DNA of 64,000 nucleotides from Lota lota (Eukaryota; Chordata; Actinopteri; Gadiformes; Lotidae), in contig JACYXH010000221.1 in NCBI GenBank assembly GCA_026745465.1, forward strand, positions 1,226,001-1,290,000, written 5' to 3'. A program made the translations under genes and the position numbers. The notes beneath the pieces are model-generated. The model saw nothing but the letters and a program-made list of their open reading frames with translations, had not been told where the DNA came from and ran no database searches. Below, piece after piece: positions 10,393 through 63,084 of the stretch. The stretch's first letter is position 1. The number at the start of each line of letters is the position of its first letter.

Positions 10393-11397
10393 ATGTCGGA
10401 GACCGACATGGGCAACCAGTCGAACAATATCCTGACCATGCACCACATGGAGCTCAGCCAGGCCACGTTCATGGAGGAGAGCAACATGACCAACACCACG
10501 GACGCGGAGTCCAACTCGATGAGCTGCGTACAGATTCGCATCCCCCAGGAACTGTTCCTTACCCTGGGGCTCATCAGCCTTGTGGAGAACATCCTGGTGG
10601 TGCTGGCCATCTTCAAGAACCGCAACCTGCACTCGCCCATGTACTACTTCATCTGCTGCCTCGCGGTGTCCGACATGCTCGTGAGTGTCAGCAACGTGGT
10701 GGAAACGATCTTCATGCTTCTGAACGACCACGGGCTGCTGGACGTCCACCCGGGCATGCTGCGACACCTGGACAACGTCATCGACGTCATGATATGCAGC
10801 TCGGTGGTGTCCTCGCTCTCGTTCCTGTGCACCATCGCGGCGGACCGTTACATCACCATATTCTACGCGCTGCGCTACCACAGCATCATGACCAGTCAGC
10901 GCGCGGTGGCAATCATCGTGTTGGTGTGGCTGGCCAGCATCACCTCGAGCATACTCTTCATCGTGTATCACACCGACAATGCCGTGATCGTGTGCCTCAT
11001 CACGTTCTTCTGCATAACTTTGGTGTTTACAGCGGCGCTCTACCTGCACATGTTCATCCTGGCCTACCTCCACTCGCGCCGCCTCGTGGCCTTCCACAAG
11101 AGTCGCCGGCAGGCCACGAGCATGAAGGGCGCGATCACGCTCACCATCCTGCTCGGGGTGTTCATCTTGTGCTGGGGCCCTTTCTTCCTTCACCTCATTC
11201 TAATTCTGACCTGCCCCACACGGCCGTTCTGCAACTGTTTCTTTAGAAATTTCAACCTTTTCCTCATTCTTATAATATGCAATTCTCTAATCGACCCCCT
11301 TATATACGCCTATCGGAGCCAAGAACTTAGAAAAACGTTAAAAGAGCTGGTTCTCTGTTCTTGGTATTTTGGCGTGTACAAATATCTATTTACATAA
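10393..11397 (+). CDS. mc1r: Melanocortin 1 receptor (MC1R), intronless
   Basis: Class A GPCR for alpha-MSH at the surface of pigment cells. It signals through Gs and cAMP and is antagonised by agouti. A single exon encodes 334 residues, or 329 if the better-context ATG at 10408 is used (G at -3 and G at +4, against T at -3 for the first ATG). Asn-glycosylation sites are near residues 8, 31 and 34. Seven helices lie at roughly 52-76, 84-106, 128-150, 171-191, 197-223, 247-273 and 285-305. The DRY motif is at 151-153, helix 6 carries [11 protein letters not shown] and helix 7 has DPLIY at 301-305 in place of NPxxY, as in all melanocortin receptors. Cys322 in LCSW is the expected palmitoylation site. 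The tail runs on as [10 protein letters not shown], a few residues longer than I remember for other fish. Lack of introns and strong similarity to fish MC1R make the call firm. Confidence 0.97.
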
Positions 11398-45483: not shown

Positions 45484-49491
<4,008 letters not shown>

Positions 49492-49631: not shown

Positions 49632-49834
<203 letters not shown>

Positions 49835-50657: not shown

Positions 50658-53600
50658 ATGGAGGCTGTTGTAAAGATAAGATCTGGTAAAATGTTTACGA
50701 CGTTTTACGTCCTTAACACTATAATTCCATTGCATGACTATCAATTTTAAAATTAGGATTATTTGCTTAAGTTTATCTTTGTCTATTATAAATATGCATT
50801 TACCCTTTGGTTTTAGGGGCCACAAAATGGGATATTCGACAGAAAGTTTGGGACCATATTGAAGAAAATAATCTCGCAAACTTCCCGAGGCCTGTTCACA
50901 ACCGTATTCCAAATTTCAAGGTAATGCATTTCATTACATTTTAGCCGTACAATACTACGGCAAAAATTGTGTTAAGGACGTTGAATGTGTAGTTCAGGCC
51001 CTATGCGCGTTCCCACACAGTCCAATAATATGTAATCTACGTTCACTGTGAACCTCTAGGTTGCACAAAAGTAGCCAGAGAACACCTCTCTGTCTACTTG
51101 TTCATCTGGTGGGGACAACAAACTTTTTAACTGCAATGGGATAACGGGAATCAAACCACAATACCTAGGCTCATTTAGATTAATCTCTTAAAAAAGTATG
51201 ACGTCGAATGCATATTTTGGATATACAGTATCCAATTTGGATTTAATATACCAACAGCCGGATTCGTAAATGCCAATAGAATACTGTTTAACGGAATGTA
51301 TGCCCATCAATTGTATTCAAGATCTTTATTGATTGGTTTTCTCTGCATGTTTGCAACCTACTCAATGGTCGCGGGTTAGGGTGCAGTTGAAGCCTGTGAC
51401 AGGCTGACGGCCCTTGAGGAATTCAAGTCTAGCCAGACCGTCAAAGTAAACCCTGACAGACCGCAGCAGCAGGCACGCTTTGTCACACTGGACGTAAGTT
51501 CCTGCTACATACCTTCTGCTCCCTCTTGTCCACACCCTCCTCCATGCAGGGGGCCTTCAGCGCCTGTGCCAGGGTCACTGGGCTTGAGGCCTTCACCGAG
51601 ACAGCTGAGGTGAAAGTGGATCCTGACAAGCCTTTGGAGGGCGCTCGGCTAGAAGTGCTACAGGTAGTAGTCATGTGTGGGTGGAAAGGCCTCTAGAAAC
51701 TACATATGAAGGCCCACTCACGCCCGTTTTATTTAACCGAAATAAGTTTTTTTGTATTTCATACAAATGTTCACAGTCTTATGTTTTATGTTAAACATTA
51801 ACAAGTGGCCATTGAACACTAACCATCACAAGTCTGCTTCTTAATCTCTTTTAAGGCAAAGAAAACGCTGTTGGTGCCCACCCCTCGTCTTCGCGCTGGT
51901 CTCTTCAACAAGATTACCCCTCCAGAGGGGGCCAGCAAAGAGCAGCTGCGTGTGTGCTCTACATCCCAGGTTGGTTTTAAGCTAGCTCTGGTTTAGCTAG
52001 CTAGAGACATTCATGCATTACATGCATTTCTGGTTGACTGTACATCTGTCTGCAGGGCGTGAAGGAGTTCAGCGTGCCTGTTGGCCTGGATGCCAAGGTG
52101 AAGGTGGACCTGGTGGTGGTTGGCTCTGTGGCCGTCTCTGAGAAAGGTGAGAGCCACAGCATTAGCTCTGAGATGTTAGTATAACCCGAAATGCTCGTTT
52201 ATTAGCCAATCTGGCAGGCAAACACAAAAAAAAGAGGCCACAAATAGTCATCTCAGTAGCTGTCTTTATGTTGAGAAGTAATGTGAAAAATCGTCTCCTT
52301 CGGAAAGGCCATCATAAAAACCGGATGGTTTGTGAGATCGATCCAGGTCCCTTTAGCATGATACTGACGGACTACACCAGAGTCACGACATCGTCCTGTC
52401 TGGTGTCAACAGAACCGCCCCATGATCATATGGACAATGTTTGCCTGGAACCGTGGTCCCTGTTATCCTTTGGGGAATGTTGGAGAGGCTCTGTGTACAT
52501 GGGAACGTGGTTGCCGACCCGCTTCATACCCTCATAAGTGCAGTTTTTCTGCACTTATTCACACTATGCCATTGATACCAATGAACCAACCTAATGGTTC
52601 CAGGAACATGGCCGTCAGGGTTGATCAAGTAGCCTACTGAGCAGGCTCAACTCTGAAATATATTGGCCTCTTCTAACTACATATATATATTTATTTATTA
52701 TGAACATCATGTTTATTTTTTGCATATATAGGGCTTGTCCATCATAACGTCACATCGCAATGACCGCCTCCAGTACCAAAGTATTACAGCTTAGGAATGT
52801 TATTGGTAGTAATGGTGTTTTGGTCATTGTTTAGGAATTGAAGCGTGAAATTATTAATCAATATGGAGGGACACTGTTGTTTCTCATGTGAGGCGTGGCA
52901 AAACAAAGTTTTGATTAGTCTAGGTTATGATAAGTTAACATTTATTAAGGGTTATCACAAAATGGCGACTATTGCCCACAAAAAATCCCATGATGCATTC
53001 TGATGTACAAGCCCTGTATATGCAACATACAGTGTGGTACATATGCTGCCACTTTGCTTACCACCTGACTTGTTGTTAGAGTGTGCTCAAGTAGAATTAA
53101 ACCTTCACTTGCTCATGACACACACTTCCTCTTATCAAGCCATCATTCAAATGTGTCACAATCTCTTACAGACACACACCATTTTGACCAGGCCATTTTG
53201 ACCAGCAATTTGTTTATTTATTTCCTGGTAGTTGATGACATGTTGTCAACAACGACTATGCCAGTAGTAGGAGATGTCTTGCCAGGAAGGAGAAATAGTA
53301 CCGCCGATGGTGTGTATAATCTAGTTTCAAGGTTGGAGTGAGATACATGAGAGGCACTTCACGGTTTGACGATTTCTACTGATGCAGGACTTTTGTTACA
53401 TAGCAGCCCACACAAATGCATTCATTAGGAAGTCCACCCAATGCTACCATTGGGGACTCCTCGCAAGCCGTCCGTGGCTAACTTCTGCTCCTGTCCTGAG
53501 ATAAGGCAACAATCTCCATACGTCTGAATGTTCTTTTCTCTATTGGATTATTGGAATTCAAGCCCCAATCAGAGCCGTCCTGTAGGAAGGGCAGTGGCCG

Positions 53601-56391
53601 TTTAGGTGAGGGGGTCATGGTTGTACCAGTGCCATGTACCATGGACCTGTACCGGAACACACTCACTGCACTGTCCAATGGACGAAGGAGACTAGAGACA
53701 GACAGGTCTGATCTACTGGTTGAATTATTTATAATATGAATGGTTTTATAGTAAGCATTTTCTTGCTTACTGTGTTGTGGTGTAGATCAAGTTTGTTAGT
53801 ACATGGACGTTGTAGCAGTTGGTTTGTTTGTTTGTTTTTAAAGAATACTCCTTTGGATTGTTCGGTGGTTATACTATGCTTAAAGCACGATTCAAACAGC
53901 GTGGTAATCAGTATGTGGTCATTATTTCCCTGCTATGCTAATCTTTACGCATCATCAGTTCCTTTTGGTACCTACTACTAATGTTCTAGTTGAGTTGCAT
54001 AAAATATTAATATATTATTATCTGATTTGATAAATTATTCACTGCACATATTGACCTCGGGTGACCCCTCGGCATGCCATTATGCAGTGGTGAAATTACA
54101 TTTCTGCTTCATAACCTCTATGGGGATTCCCACTCTAACAGGTTATCGGATAGGGAAAGGAGAGGGCTATGCAGACATGGAGTACGGCATGATGGTCTCA
54201 ATGGGAGCTGTGACGGACTCTACTGTGGTGATCACGGTTGTCCACGACTGCCAGGTCAGTGTTTCATTTTGAGCAATTTCCATTTTTCATTAATGAAAAC
54301 TAGAAGCTGTCGGTGAGCATTGGTGCTAGCCGGATGTTGACTAGCATTGCGTGGCTGGTCTTCACAGGTGGTGGACATCCCAGAGGAGCTGGTCGAACCA
54401 CATGACCTCACTGTGGACTACATCCTCACCCCCACCAGAGTCATCAAGACCAACTGCCTCCTCCCCAAACCAGAGGGGATCATCTGGTCAAAGGTAGAGT
54501 CGCTTTTGTTATCTACAAGATGTGTAATTCTATGTCTGACCACTAGAGGGCAGTCAGCTCCTTCCAAAGCCCTCTTGTTCACAAGCGAGGCCAATGCTAC
54601 CCTGACCCCTTCCTCCTGAAAGCAAATTATATCCACAGCATTGTAGAGGACTTTAATATGCCACAATGAATGCCAGCTTCATGTATCCACTACCAATCCC
54701 CACAGCTGGAAATCACTGTGATTTCGGGATGTATGGCGGGGTTTAGAAATCGAGACGGCACAATGGCAAATTTGGTCAGTGAACAGTAGAAAATATAATT
54801 TATTTGATGAAATATCATCGTCATGCAAGTAGGACACCATCAAATGCAGATGAGTGAGGTTTCAAAATGTAATACAAATGTTTTGCTTTTCACAAGGGTT
54901 TTACGATCCGCCATTATCATAGAGGTTGAAAAGAACAATATGATCCAGAGTGGATAGATATATAGATGGATGGATGGATAGATAATTAATGTGTGTGTGT
55001 ATATATAAATGTATTTGACACAATGACTCTTAAGTTCTGCTACGTGAGTCCCTTAAGACGCACATCTTAGTAAACCGGACCCAGTGACCTTCCAGGCAGG
55101 AAGGCCATGTCTGCTCATCAAAGGCCCTGCGTGGCAGGCTCGGCTCTGCCGGGGCCGGTGGAAGTAGGGGTCAGAAAGGACCACGCTATAAACAATAGCG
55201 GCATATATCCTTTACAGCCCCGGCCACTATCAAAGTCCTCCCGTTCCCTGTTTAAAGAATGAAAGAGCACTCTCTATTTTTACCTGCAGGGAAAGTGCAA
55301 TATTCCACTGACTAAATGCATATTTAGTCTCAGCAGCCCAGTCAAGAAAAGGGAGGAAAGGAAAGCTATATTTTTGTGTTTTTCAAATATGGAGGGAGGT
55401 CAAGGGTGTGTTTCTCATAGCATGCTTTATTCTAAAAGTCCAATATCCCTTCACACCAAGCATTAGGTCGCCAGTTACATTGCATGGATCCCCTGCAATG
55501 ATAGCTAAACGCTGCTAGTGCTGGTGTCCCCCCACCCAGTGAGCCCATGCAGTTCTCTGTCCCCAGCTTAACAAATACATGCTGGAGAAGATCCCCGTCC
55601 TGAAGAAGCTGCGGGCGCTCGAGCTCCAGGCAGGCAAGGAGGTTCTCCTGGGGCCCGAGCCTCCTGCAGAGCCTGGGAGGGCCCCGAGAGGCGGAGACCC
55701 CCAGGCTCCCCAGGGCGAGGGCCTGAAGTCCAGGAGACAGGGCAGGCCGCGGCCGAGACGGAACACCCAGCGAGAATCCGACGGGGAACCCAGACGGGAG
55801 GCCCCCGGCCCCGGAGGCAACGAGGAGCCGCTGCCGAAGCCCCGACGCCGGCCGGCTAGGGTGAGGAGAGAAGGGGGCAGAGGGGAAAACCAGGCCAATG
55901 GCAGCGAGGAAGGTCGAGAGAAAGTGAGAGGGGAGCGCAGGGGATGGAGCTGGAGGGGGAGCGTCGGGGAGGGTGGAAGGAAGGGGAAGGAGGAGGAGGA
56001 GGAGGAAGGTCTGGAAGGTGAAACCCAACACGGCCCTCCCTCTAATGTGACCACGGTGTATCTGGGAGGCATCCCCGCAGGCCTGCGGGTCAGCGAGTTG
56101 AAGACCGCCCTGCGGGAGAAGGAGGCTCTCCCTCTGAGACTCACCTGGCAGGGGGCTCAGCACAGGGCCTTCCTGGACTACGGGGACCCCCAGGCCGCAG
56201 ACCAGGCCATGGAGGCCCTCCAGGGCCTCTCCCTGAACGGCCAGAGCCTGCACGCCGAGCTGGCCAAGAACCAGCGGGGGGGCAGGAGGGCCGGCCCGTC
56301 CAGGAGCAGACCCAGGTCCAGGCTGGTGTCCCATACTAAGGCCACGCCCAGTGATGATTCTGGGGAGCCTCAAAAGGAGGATCTGCAGTAA
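50658..56391 (+). CDS. mthfsd: MTHFSD, methenyltetrahydrofolate synthase domain protein
   Basis: RNA-binding protein with an N-terminal 5-formyl-THF cyclo-ligase-like fold and a C-terminal RRM. Its enzymatic activity is unproven. Exons: 50658-50685, 50817-50920, 51380-51493, 51550-51663, 51856-51969, 52056-52146, 54142-54254, 54368-54493 and 55567-56391 (TAA). Phases join for all, giving 542 residues, or 504 with only one of the two 114-nt exons. Human is about 383. Signatures are [14 protein letters not shown] (exon 2), [20 protein letters not shown] (exon 5), [11 protein letters not shown] (exon 7) and [20 protein letters not shown] (exon 8). The last exon has a long Arg/Glu/Gly/Pro-rich linker, then an RRM at about 429-502 (RNP2-like VYLGGI, RNP1-like HRAFLDYG) and a basic tail. 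The linker is much longer than in mammals. mthfsd and foxf1 converge. Confidence 0.93.
51380..51493 (+). CDS. mthfsd: mthfsd exon 3, first of a homologous exon pair
   Basis: 114 nt, phase 0 at both ends, acceptor TTAG and donor GTAAGT. It encodes 38 residues including GAVEACDRL and [13 protein letters not shown]. It is equivalent in position and length to the next exon, with 18 of 38 residues identical. The VKVNPD..P form resembles microbial relatives of the family more than exon 4 does. Confidence 0.8.
51550..51663 (+). CDS. mthfsd: mthfsd exon 4, second of a homologous exon pair
   Basis: 114 nt, phase 0 at both ends, acceptor GCAG and donor GTAGTA. It encodes GAFSACARV and [18 protein letters not shown], which is the version closest to the mammalian protein as I remember it ([18 protein letters not shown]). 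The intron separating it from exon 3 is only 56 nt. Confidence 0.85.
52147..54141. other. mthfsd intron, 2.0 kb
   Basis: It contains a TIR element (52722-53023) and nothing else recognisable. Open frames here are not gene-like. Confidence 0.6.
52722..53023. mobile_element. TIR element, about 300 bp
   Basis: The left end GCATATATAGGGCTTGTCCA is mirrored by a right end TGTACAAGCCCTGTATATGC (revcomp GCATATACAGGGCTTGTACA). Identity continues weakly inward (CATCA). Consistent with a MITE flanked by TA; no open frame. Confidence 0.65.
54494..55566. other. mthfsd last intron, 1.1 kb
   Basis: Contains a short GATG/GATA run near 54953-54985. No exon is seen. Confidence 0.55.
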
Positions 56392-56821: not shown

Positions 56822-56842
56822 ACAGTTGTTAGAAGGTCTAGT

Positions 56843-56900
<58 letters not shown>

Positions 56901-56921
56901 ACTAGACCTTCTAACAACTGT
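56822..56921. mobile_element. AT-core fold-back element
   Basis: ACAGTTGTTAGAAGGTCTAG plus TTATTTTA pairs perfectly with its mirror across a (TA)n core of about 45 bp. It is probably a small snap-back MITE in the mthfsd 3' UTR or just after it. Confidence 0.8.
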
Positions 56922-60523: not shown

Positions 60524-63084
60524 TCACATTACGCAGGGCTTGATGTCCTGGTAGGAGACCTGTTGGTGGTGATAGTAGGACCCGCTGCTCGGAGAATGCA
60601 TGGCAGAAGATGTCATGGCGTTGAACGAGAAGACGAACTCCTTTCGGTCACACATACTGGGTGACTGGGAATGGTACCGTGGAATACCTAAAGATAGAAC
60701 AAAAAAAAACACGTTTTTACAGGTCAATGTTTTGGTCAAACGTAGGCTTCAATACAAACAGGACATTTCGAATATGGTTGAAAGGGATTTAAGCAAAGGC
60801 ACTTTATTAAGAGGTAGGCCTACAACCATAGCCCATTCAATCAGTCCTATTTGTATTATCATTTAGACTGTAGCCTCCATGTAGGCCTGATAATCAACGT
60901 CTCATAAACACCTCTTACGATATTAGGCCTATGTTTGATTGCGTATTTGATCAACGCAGCGGACCAACACAGACAACAGCGGCACAAATAATAATAAACA
61001 TAACCTAACGACGACGGTGACAGAAAATATGAAATATAACTGGTCATTGTGGATAATAAGGGCCTATATATGTTTTTTGTTCCTAATTCAATTTTAAAAC
61101 ATGGCTCCTCATTGGACCAACATAAAATGTATTTGATAAGGCTAATTTGGCCTTACTTTGAATAAACTACCCGTGGGGTTTTACGGTATTAAACACGGAT
61201 GTTTAATAGCCTATGTCTTAATCCTACTTTGCCATTTAAACGTGTGTAGTCCTATTATAGATTCTACGGCACTTGAGCAATTCCATCCTTTTTCTTTTGC
61301 AATCTGCCTGCTAGTTCTTGAATAGGAACGCATTCTATTATGAACACCATATGACATAGTCCAAATTGACTGGAAGCAGTCCGTAAGAGGGTTGGATAGC
61401 CTATAATTGAGAGTGGTCTGTTTGCACGCTAATCCCGAAGGGCCCCATGAAGCCTCGGGGCCAGGCTGCCTGGCTCCATCCGCTCGCTCTGCCTCCGAGA
61501 TGGTCTCTGCCGCTCTGGGACTATGTGGGCCTGACGGCGATGTATGCGCCTAAGTATAAAACAATCTGAAGTGTTCTGGGTTAAAAAAAAAAAAAGAAGA
61601 AGCAAATTTGTATCTAATGAGAACCTTCTCATTTAACCATAAATGCAATTGAATTAATATTAAAAACAAATAGAGAAACGCCACGTCAGCCTGTATGTAA
61701 CACGCTGAATGTGTTTTCTTAAAACGAGAATGCAGCTGTTTTTTTTTTTAAATTGCTGACTGTTAGAATAGGCTATATTAGGCTGAAATTAAATGTGTGT
61801 TAGGCTGCACAACCCGTTGACATGCGACAGATGAGACAAAGTGGAGCACATTTGTCATTTTCTTGGTTAAAACTTGGCTTTTAAAATAACCGAATAAAGC
61901 TTACGCAAAATGCTTCGTTTTTCATTGCTCAATGTTTTGGTTGTGAATGACATGTTTTTCACTGACGTTATGTAACTCTAAACATTTGTCACTGTGGGGC
62001 CTTTTTTTTTTACATCACAGTTTGATCTCGCAGCCTATAGTCAATATATTTTGACAGTTATTCACTCTATCGACCTATGAGTTAAATAATGATCGTCCGC
62101 CCTACCTTGTAGATCCGTACTGTGGCCGTTCTGGTGCAGATATGGCTGCTCTATTGAGTGCGCTGGCAGGCTGGGCTGCAGCGGGTTCGTTCCGGGGTTA
62201 CATGGAGACAACGGCTGCTGCTTGATGTAAGATGCTCCGTTATTGAGCGAGGCCGAGGGGTTGGGGGCCCAGGCCGAGGCTGAGCTGGAGTAGACGGAGT
62301 GGGGGTCCATCACTCCCCCGCCGGTAAGGAGCGGGGATCCAGAATTGTCGTGGTGAGAATAGTCACCCCCGGTGGATCCCGTACAGCTGCCCATGTAGGA
62401 ATGTCCACTGTTGGCTGACAAGTGTGACATGGAGTGCCCGGACAGACCCATGCCCTCCATATTACCTGCCAAATGTCCATTCATCATCCCGATCCCGCTG
62501 TCCAGAGACAGGCTATTGGGCGGACAAGAGAGACCTCCACCACCGCCCTGGAAGTTGTAGGACTCGGGGATGTGGTTGAATCCCAGGCCGTTCATCATGC
62601 TGTACATGGGTTTCAGAGCTTGGCACTTGCGCCTGAAGCCCCTTGGCCTTCTTCTAAATGAACCTTCCTCGAACATGAACTCACTGGCAGGGTCGATAGT
62701 CCAGTAGTGGCCCTTGCCTGGCCGCCCGAGGCCCTTGGGTAGTTTAATGAAGCATTCATTCAGGGACAAATTGTGTCGCACGGAATTCTTCCATCCCTGA
62801 TACGAGCCCCTGAAAAACGGGAAACGGCTCTGAAGGAACTGGTATATTTCACTGAGCGTCAGTCGTTTTGTGGGAGAGCTTTGGATAGCCATGACTATCA
62901 GGGCTATGTAGGAATACGGAGGTTTCTCCGGGCGACGGATCCCTGCGTTAGTCTTCTTTGGTTTCGTAGTGGACGAGGCGGTTTCCATCACCGCCGTCTG
63001 TCCGTGTGGCTTCTCCTGGGCAGACATGGGACTGCTCTGGGCAGGCGTCTGCGCTGGGGTCTGCTGCTGAACTTCTGCCGTCAT
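60524..63084 (-). CDS. foxf1: FOXF1 forkhead transcription factor
   Basis: Nuclear transcription factor of lateral plate and splanchnic mesoderm, acting downstream of Hedgehog. Two exons (63084-62106 and 60687-60524) joined by a 1418-nt GT-AG intron give 380 residues (human 379). The forkhead domain spans about 52-152, opening [20 protein letters not shown] and containing the recognition-helix region [20 protein letters not shown]. It is followed by the FOXF-specific [20 protein letters not shown]. The N-terminus ([20 protein letters not shown]) is like that of fish foxf1 rather than the glycine-rich mammalian one. The C-terminal activation region ends [10 protein letters not shown], preceded by [17 protein letters not shown] in exon 2. 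These tails separate FOXF1 from FOXF2. No defects are seen. Confidence 0.97.
60688..62105. other. foxf1 intron
   Basis: 1418 nt, AT-rich, with no exons or notable repeats. The donor reads AAG|GTAGGG and the acceptor TTTAG on the minus strand. Confidence 0.85.

What the first reader, a model, noticed from the sequence alone, without database searches (positions are those of the whole stretch)
51380..51663. Likely mutually exclusive exons in mthfsd
Two adjacent exons have the same length (114 nt) and phase (0-0), encode homologous 38-residue segments (18 of 38 identical, by my count) and are separated by a 56-nt intron. That spacing leaves little room for donor and branch site to be used together, a known steric route to mutually exclusive splicing. 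Including both would duplicate a piece of the cyclo-ligase-like fold between the NFK of exon 2 and the [10 protein letters not shown] of exon 5. The human protein as I remember it has only one such segment, closest to exon 4. At 47% identity the duplication is old, so both copies appear to be under selection. The two versions (VNPDRPQQQ and VDPDKPLEG) could give isoforms with different ligand or RNA properties.
Basis: partly seen in the sequence, partly recalled or inferred. Interest (0 to 1): 0.85.

Follow-up and report, generated by a model that had tools for sequence, protein, structure and literature searches.

The report
Swappable exon pair in fish mthfsd
A fish gene of unknown biochemical role carries two alternative versions of the same building block: one keeps a motif found in most bacterial and archaeal relatives that were compared and the other has lost it, so the cell probably splices in one or the other to make two forms of the protein.

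Summary
Two adjacent 114-nt, phase-0 exons (51380-51493, 51550-51663) separated by a 56-nt GT-AG intron lie in mthfsd of a genome taken to be a fish's. They match at 18 of 38 residues (z 9.7); no second copy was found. Pairwise pN/pS is about 0.49 with saturated synonymous change. Either exon alone completes the Pfam cyclo-ligase domain (103.6 and 100.2 bits); both together score 95.3.

Of 87 bacterial and archaeal relatives, 83 have NPDxPQ here; exon 3 has NPDRPQ, exon 4 has DPDKPL. In a confident model of an archaeal relative the segment is a helix, helix, strand, loop, helix unit.

Best explanation: mutually exclusive splicing that swaps a pocket-loop module. Evidence is architecture and homology only; no RNA data were available. 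The steric argument is plausible, not decisive: a human 56-nt intron is spliced. NMD triggered by frame shift could not enforce exclusivity, since all four exon combinations stay in frame.

Verdict: a new member of a known kind, with an unusual ancestral/derived split.

The parts
50658..50685 (+). mthfsd exon 1 (start codon)
50817..50920 (+). mthfsd exon 2, ends ...IPNFK, phase 0; donor AAG|GTAATG
51344..51349 (+). TGCATG (RBFOX-type hexamer; name recalled) upstream of exon 3, next to TTTTCTCT; chance about 6% of one within 50 nt upstream of either exon
   Evidence: weak
51380..51493 (+). exon 3, 114 nt, [38 protein letters not shown]; keeps the NPDxPQ motif; poorest pyrimidine tract of the gene's 8 acceptors (10 of 20), donor GAC|GTAAGT third best of 8
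51494..51549 (+). 56-nt intron between the two exons, the shortest of the gene's 8 introns; its retention gives a stop inside exon 4
51550..51663 (+). exon 4, 114 nt, [38 protein letters not shown]; motif changed to DPDKPL; acceptor tract 16 of 20 pyrimidines (joint highest), lowest-scoring donor of 8, CAG|GTAGTA
51856..51969 (+). mthfsd exon 5 ([12 protein letters not shown]...)
52056..52146 (+). mthfsd exon 6
54142..54254 (+). mthfsd exon 7 (conserved GKGEGYAD)
54368..54493 (+). mthfsd exon 8
55567..56391 (+). last exon: basic linker and RRM, stop TAA; RRM matches human MTHFSD 2e5j

Best explanation
Exons 3 and 4 are an old tandem exon duplication in mthfsd, spliced mutually exclusively so that each mRNA carries one 38-residue module (helix, helix, core strand, loop, helix) of the cyclo-ligase-like domain. 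Exon 3 gives a form that keeps the NPDxPQ loop seen in most prokaryotic relatives compared; exon 4 gives a derived form (DPDKPL) with an altered pocket rim. The RRM is common to both. Exclusivity probably comes from crowding of the exon-3 donor and the exon-4 branch and pyrimidine tract inside 56 nt, with the choice set by competition between a weak exon-3 acceptor and a weak exon-4 donor, perhaps modulated by PTB- or RBFOX-type factors. Shown: the sequence architecture, homology, coding constraint over the pair, and the conserved-motif difference. Inferred: the splicing pattern, the crowding mechanism, and the functional difference.
Against: No transcript or junction data. No second vertebrate genome, so conservation of the pair is untested. 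A human 56-nt intron is spliced (43-65 nt introns), so double inclusion is not physically excluded. Pairwise pN/pS averages both lineages and synonymous change is saturated, so it does not prove present selection on exon 3. The double form still matches Pfam well above the cut-off (95.3 against 27). Exon 3 is not uniformly the more ancestral: of 20 differing positions it scores higher at 13 and exon 4 at 7, mostly near the C-terminal end. Both exons have lost 3 of 14 strongly conserved columns. No docking structure: RNA fold z +1.17.
Confidence: 0.77

Rival explanations
1. Exon 3 is a relic or very rarely used exon; exon 4 is constitutive.
For: Exon 3 has the poorest polypyrimidine tract of the gene, 10 of 20.
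Against: Open frame and intact GT-AG sites. It keeps 11 of 14 strongly conserved columns against 9 of 14 for exon 4, including NPDxPQ; a long-unused exon would hardly keep the motif better than the used one.
Confidence: 0.1
2. The two exons behave as independent cassettes (none, one or both), not strictly exclusively.
For: All four combinations stay in frame (504, 504, 542 or 466 residues before the stop). Ultra-short introns can be spliced.
Against: Skipping both would remove, and including both would double, a unit holding a core strand. 0 of 87 prokaryotic relatives shows an insertion in the aligned segment.
Confidence: 0.08
3. Both exons are constitutive, giving a protein with a tandem 38-residue repeat.
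For: The intron has a good donor and a pyrimidine-rich tract, and the double form still passes the Pfam cut-off.
Against: The Pfam score falls from 103.6 or 100.2 to 95.3, and the duplicated unit would have to be looped out of a compact fold.
Confidence: 0.05

Closest known systems
C. elegans coq-2 exons 6a/6e (PMC7434440, passages seen)
   Same: Two equal-length homologous exons swapped inside a metabolic enzyme's core near the substrate site; human and other hosts have one exon, homologous to 6a.
   Different: There RNA data and removal of the exon link it to substrate choice (rhodoquinone or ubiquinone). In coq-2 the extra exon (6e) is the lineage-special one; here the exon that the human protein is recalled to lack is the ancestral-looking one.
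OGDH exons 4a/4b (PMC7969005, passages seen, abstract included)
   Same: Tandem exon duplication in a metabolic enzyme, with branch points of the intervening intron below the roughly 50-nt steric limit from the donor.
   Different: That intron is 118-131 nt in birds and mammals with distant branch points and a long AG-exclusion zone; here the intron is 56 nt and the crowding is direct.
Human MXE clusters with potential steric interference (57 of 629; PMC5740500, section 7 and passages seen)
   Same: Donor to branch point under 50 nt; homologous exons within a folded domain.
   Different: MTHFSD is not named in the main text of that paper; its datasets were not readable here.
COG0212, the 5-formyltetrahydrofolate cyclo-ligase paralogue tied to thiamin (Pribat et al. 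2011, not held; described in PMC4120688, passages seen)
   Same: A cyclo-ligase paralogue of unknown biochemical function; that the MTHFSD domain and the 87 relatives belong to it is recalled, not tested.
   Different: The relatives used here have one version of the segment; the fish gene has two, and an added RRM.
Canonical MTHFS (3hxt, 3hy3, 3hy4, 3hy6)
   Different: In the profile alignment human MTHFS has Q-D-E-I-E-T where this subfamily has NPDxPQ (low posterior); the exon-3 isoform falls below NCBI's MTHFS cut-off (39.2 against 84.9 bits; exon-4 isoform not scored).

Membership tests
Mutually exclusive homologous exon pair | Adjacent internal exons of compatible length and phase | tested here: met
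   114/114 nt, phase 0-0
Mutually exclusive homologous exon pair | Homologous coding sequence | tested here: met
   18 of 38 identical, z 9.7
Mutually exclusive homologous exon pair | Both encode the same structural slot of a folded domain | tested here: met
   Each isoform spans the whole PF01812 profile; slot structure from a homologue model, mean pLDDT 95.5; the fish isoforms themselves were not modelled
Mutually exclusive homologous exon pair | One and only one exon per transcript | not testable with these tools
   No RNA data held
Mutually exclusive homologous exon pair | Conservation of the pair in related species | not testable with these tools
   No vertebrate collection held
Steric-interference class of MXE | Donor to branch point under 50 nt | tested here: inconclusive
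   Plausible adenines 14-41 nt from the donor, but no branch point mapped and a 56-nt intron can be spliced
MTHFSD | N-terminal cyclo-ligase-like domain | tested here: met
   PF01812, 100.2-103.6 bits against cut-off 27
MTHFSD | C-terminal RRM | tested here: met
   Best PDB match 2e5j (MTHFSD), E 4e-20; Pfam RRM_1 alone is below its cut-off (13.7 against 20.7)
Canonical MTHFS (5-formylTHF cyclo-ligase equivalog) | Reaches the TIGR02727 cut-off | tested here: not met
   39.2 bits against 84.9 for the exon-3 isoform; the exon-4 isoform was not scored
   Present in 83 of 87 relatives and in exon 3, absent from exon 4; no COG0212 model was available to score

The most novel reading that the evidence does not exclude
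One fish gene toggles, by exon choice, between the ancestral pocket loop of a family found in archaea and bacteria (exon 3, NPDxPQ) and a derived vertebrate pocket (exon 4, DPDKPL). Mammals kept only the derived exon, so human MTHFSD is a specialised or non-catalytic descendant whose ancestral activity survives as the fish exon-3 isoform. If so, the exon-3 isoform is the form to assay for the family's unknown reaction.
Probability: 0.38. Interest if true: 0.68.

Novelty: new member of a known kind. Interest (0 to 1): 0.5.

Why it matters
The function of the MTHFSD domain is unsettled, and the annotated prokaryotic relatives seen here are called cyclo-ligases (5 of 7 plasmid records) although the one that was scored, L016, falls below the cyclo-ligase equivalog cut-off. 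A natural swap of the family-conserved pocket loop, with everything else constant, would be a ready-made experiment for finding the ligand. It would also add a metabolic-type, RRM-bearing protein to the enzymes tuned by mutually exclusive exons, and would warn that fish and human MTHFSD may not be interchangeable.

Tried and rejected
A docking or selector RNA structure over the pair: folding of 51320-51700 is no better than shuffles (z +1.17, 91 of 100 shuffles at least as stable). In 50900-52000 one inverted repeat pair (18 nt, 78% complementary) and no direct repeats of 14 nt or more were found; I judge the inverted pair to be chance, without a formal test.

A third exon copy in the window: none seen. 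A second gene copy: the own-genome search with the exon-4 isoform gave 6 matches, all in this locus; only the best candidates are scored by that tool, and the PF01812 search missed mthfsd itself.

RBFOX regulation: TGCATG at 51344 is suggestive, but the chance is about 6% within 50 nt upstream of either exon and 36% over the 706-nt region, so it is only a lead.

Print: searches 'MTHFSD + mutually exclusive' (6 papers, listing seen; passages seen of one, PMC8116631, which names MTHFSD among human skipped-exon events), 'MTHFSD' (93 papers, 40 listed) and 'MTHFSD with exon-duplication terms' (189 papers hold two of six terms, 10 listed, none of the 10 holding MTHFSD) showed no report of this exon pair in what was listed. 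MTHFSD is absent from the main texts of PMC9741552, PMC5740500, PMC7969005 and PMC4465641. Supplementary tables could not be opened, so prior annotation is not excluded. Searches gave nothing used.

The first prokaryote scan confirmed no relative among 61 pattern matches; the second succeeded.

PDB sequence search with single isoforms aligned mainly the C-terminal half; the profile search covered the segment, with low posterior for human MTHFS in the loop, so the NPD-to-QDE61 alignment is tentative. That E61 contacts folate is recalled, from no call.

Full report
WHAT IS THERE. Exons 3 (51380-51493) and 4 (51550-51663) are both 114 nt, phase 0-0, bordered by AG and GT, and separated by a 56-nt GT-AG intron, the shortest of eight (the next are 86, 113 and 131 nt). 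Their peptides share 18 of 38 residues and 61 of 114 bases, at z 9.7 against shuffles. A six-frame scan of the window shows no third copy. The gene is identified by its cyclo-ligase domain (PF01812), its RRM (best PDB match human MTHFSD 2e5j, E 4e-20; Pfam's general RRM model stays below its cut-off) and a forkhead gene at 62062-63084; that human MTHFSD also lies by a FOX gene cluster is recalled, and papers on the 16q24.1 FOX cluster are among those that hold the name (listing). The own-genome search found no other copy (best candidates only). The PF01812 search rang at one other locus, on contig C659, and not at mthfsd itself.

ARE BOTH EXONS CONSTRAINED? Between the two exons pS is 0.75 and pN 0.37, a ratio of 0.49 with a bootstrap interval of 0.32-0.70 (0 of 5000 at or above 1), against a median of 0.98 for shuffled codons; corrected values are dN 0.52 and dS 3.0, which is saturated. 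This shows coding constraint over the pair's history, not on each exon today. Of 14 columns at least 80% conserved among 87 prokaryotic relatives, exon 3 keeps 11 and exon 4 keeps 9; three are lost in both; the rest of the fish protein keeps 39 of 46.

THE NEW POINT. The genome set was confirmed with the exon-4 isoform and found with patterns that do not include residues differing between the exons, so it does not favour exon 3. Of these 87, 83 have NPDxPQ in the segment; N is present in 84 and Q in 85, D in 0 and L in 1. Exon 3 reads NPDRPQ and exon 4 reads DPDKPL. Exon 3 is closer by identity in 83 of 87, tied in 3 and further in 1; by BLOSUM62 it is higher in 85 and lower in 2; profile scores are 51.3 and 34.8 bits. 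Of the 20 differing positions exon 3 scores higher at 13 and exon 4 at 7, the latter mostly in the last helix. In tblastn against plasmids the exon-3 isoform scored higher for 5 of 7 records, equal for 1 and lower for 1. That human statement rests on recall alone.

HOW IT PROBABLY WORKS. All four combinations of the two exons keep the reading frame and a single stop, so frame-based decay cannot police them; if use is exclusive, splicing must do it. In the 56-nt intron the adenines that could serve as branch points lie at positions 14, 16, 18, 39 and 41, under the 50-nt donor-branch limit used in PMC5740500, which classed 57 of 629 human clusters as potentially sterically limited (section 7 and passages seen). 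None of the five fits the yUnAy consensus (my reading; consensus title seen), so the branch site is uncertain. The inner sites are good (exon-3 donor 7.9, third of eight; exon-4 tract 16 of 20 pyrimidines, joint highest) and the outer ones are the weakest of the gene (exon-3 tract 10 of 20; exon-4 donor 4.6), which suits competition (matrix recalled). Against a hard block, human ultra-short introns, including a 56-nt one in HNRNPH1, are spliced; that one depends on SPF45 because of its truncated tract (PMC8363638, passages seen; PMC4463651, passages seen). Intron retention would put a stop inside exon 4. No helpful RNA structure was found. A TGCATG beside a TTTTCTCT tract upstream of exon 3 is a lead for tissue control, not evidence.

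COMPARISON AND NOVELTY. The nearest precedents are coq-2 in worms, where equal-length exons remodel the enzyme core and humans have one exon (PMC7434440, passages seen), and OGDH in vertebrates (PMC7969005, passages seen). Tandem duplicated exons used exclusively are usually ancient: more than 90% of the 236 annotated human events have orthologous events in teleosts (PMC9741552, passages seen). In what my searches listed, no paper describes this pair, but supplementary lists could not be read and genome annotation may already carry both isoforms. I class it as a new member of a known kind. What is unusual is that one exon holds the family-wide motif and the other has lost it.

VERDICT. Observation confirmed; mutually exclusive splicing likely (0.77) but unproven; functional divergence at the pocket is a grounded hypothesis. 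Interest 0.5.

Noticed in passing
window 62062-63084 (-): Forkhead gene (PF00250, 126 bits), resembling foxf1 by recall, downstream of mthfsd in opposite orientation.
   Followed up: partly
window 10393-11397 (+): Single-ORF 334-aa rhodopsin-family receptor (PF00001) that resembles a melanocortin receptor such as mc1r (by recall).
   Followed up: partly
window about 48140-49490 (+): Exons of a coiled-coil gene just upstream of mthfsd, resembling gas8/drc4 (by recall from the sequence), followed by a long GT microsatellite at about 49637-49775.
   Followed up: no
window about 56822-56921: Inverted repeat with arms of roughly 28 nt, perfect as far as read by eye, around a TA run just downstream of the mthfsd stop codon.
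   Followed up: no
L008, L010, L012: On three alphaproteobacterial plasmids the cyclo-ligase-like gene lies beside a LysR regulator, in two of them also beside a BMP-family gene, a hint at a salvage pathway for the family.
   Followed up: no
literature, PMC7918649 (passages seen): mthfsd is reported about 11-fold up in gills of Antarctic notothenioids and read there as a folate enzyme; if the isoforms differ, which one is up would matter.
   Followed up: no
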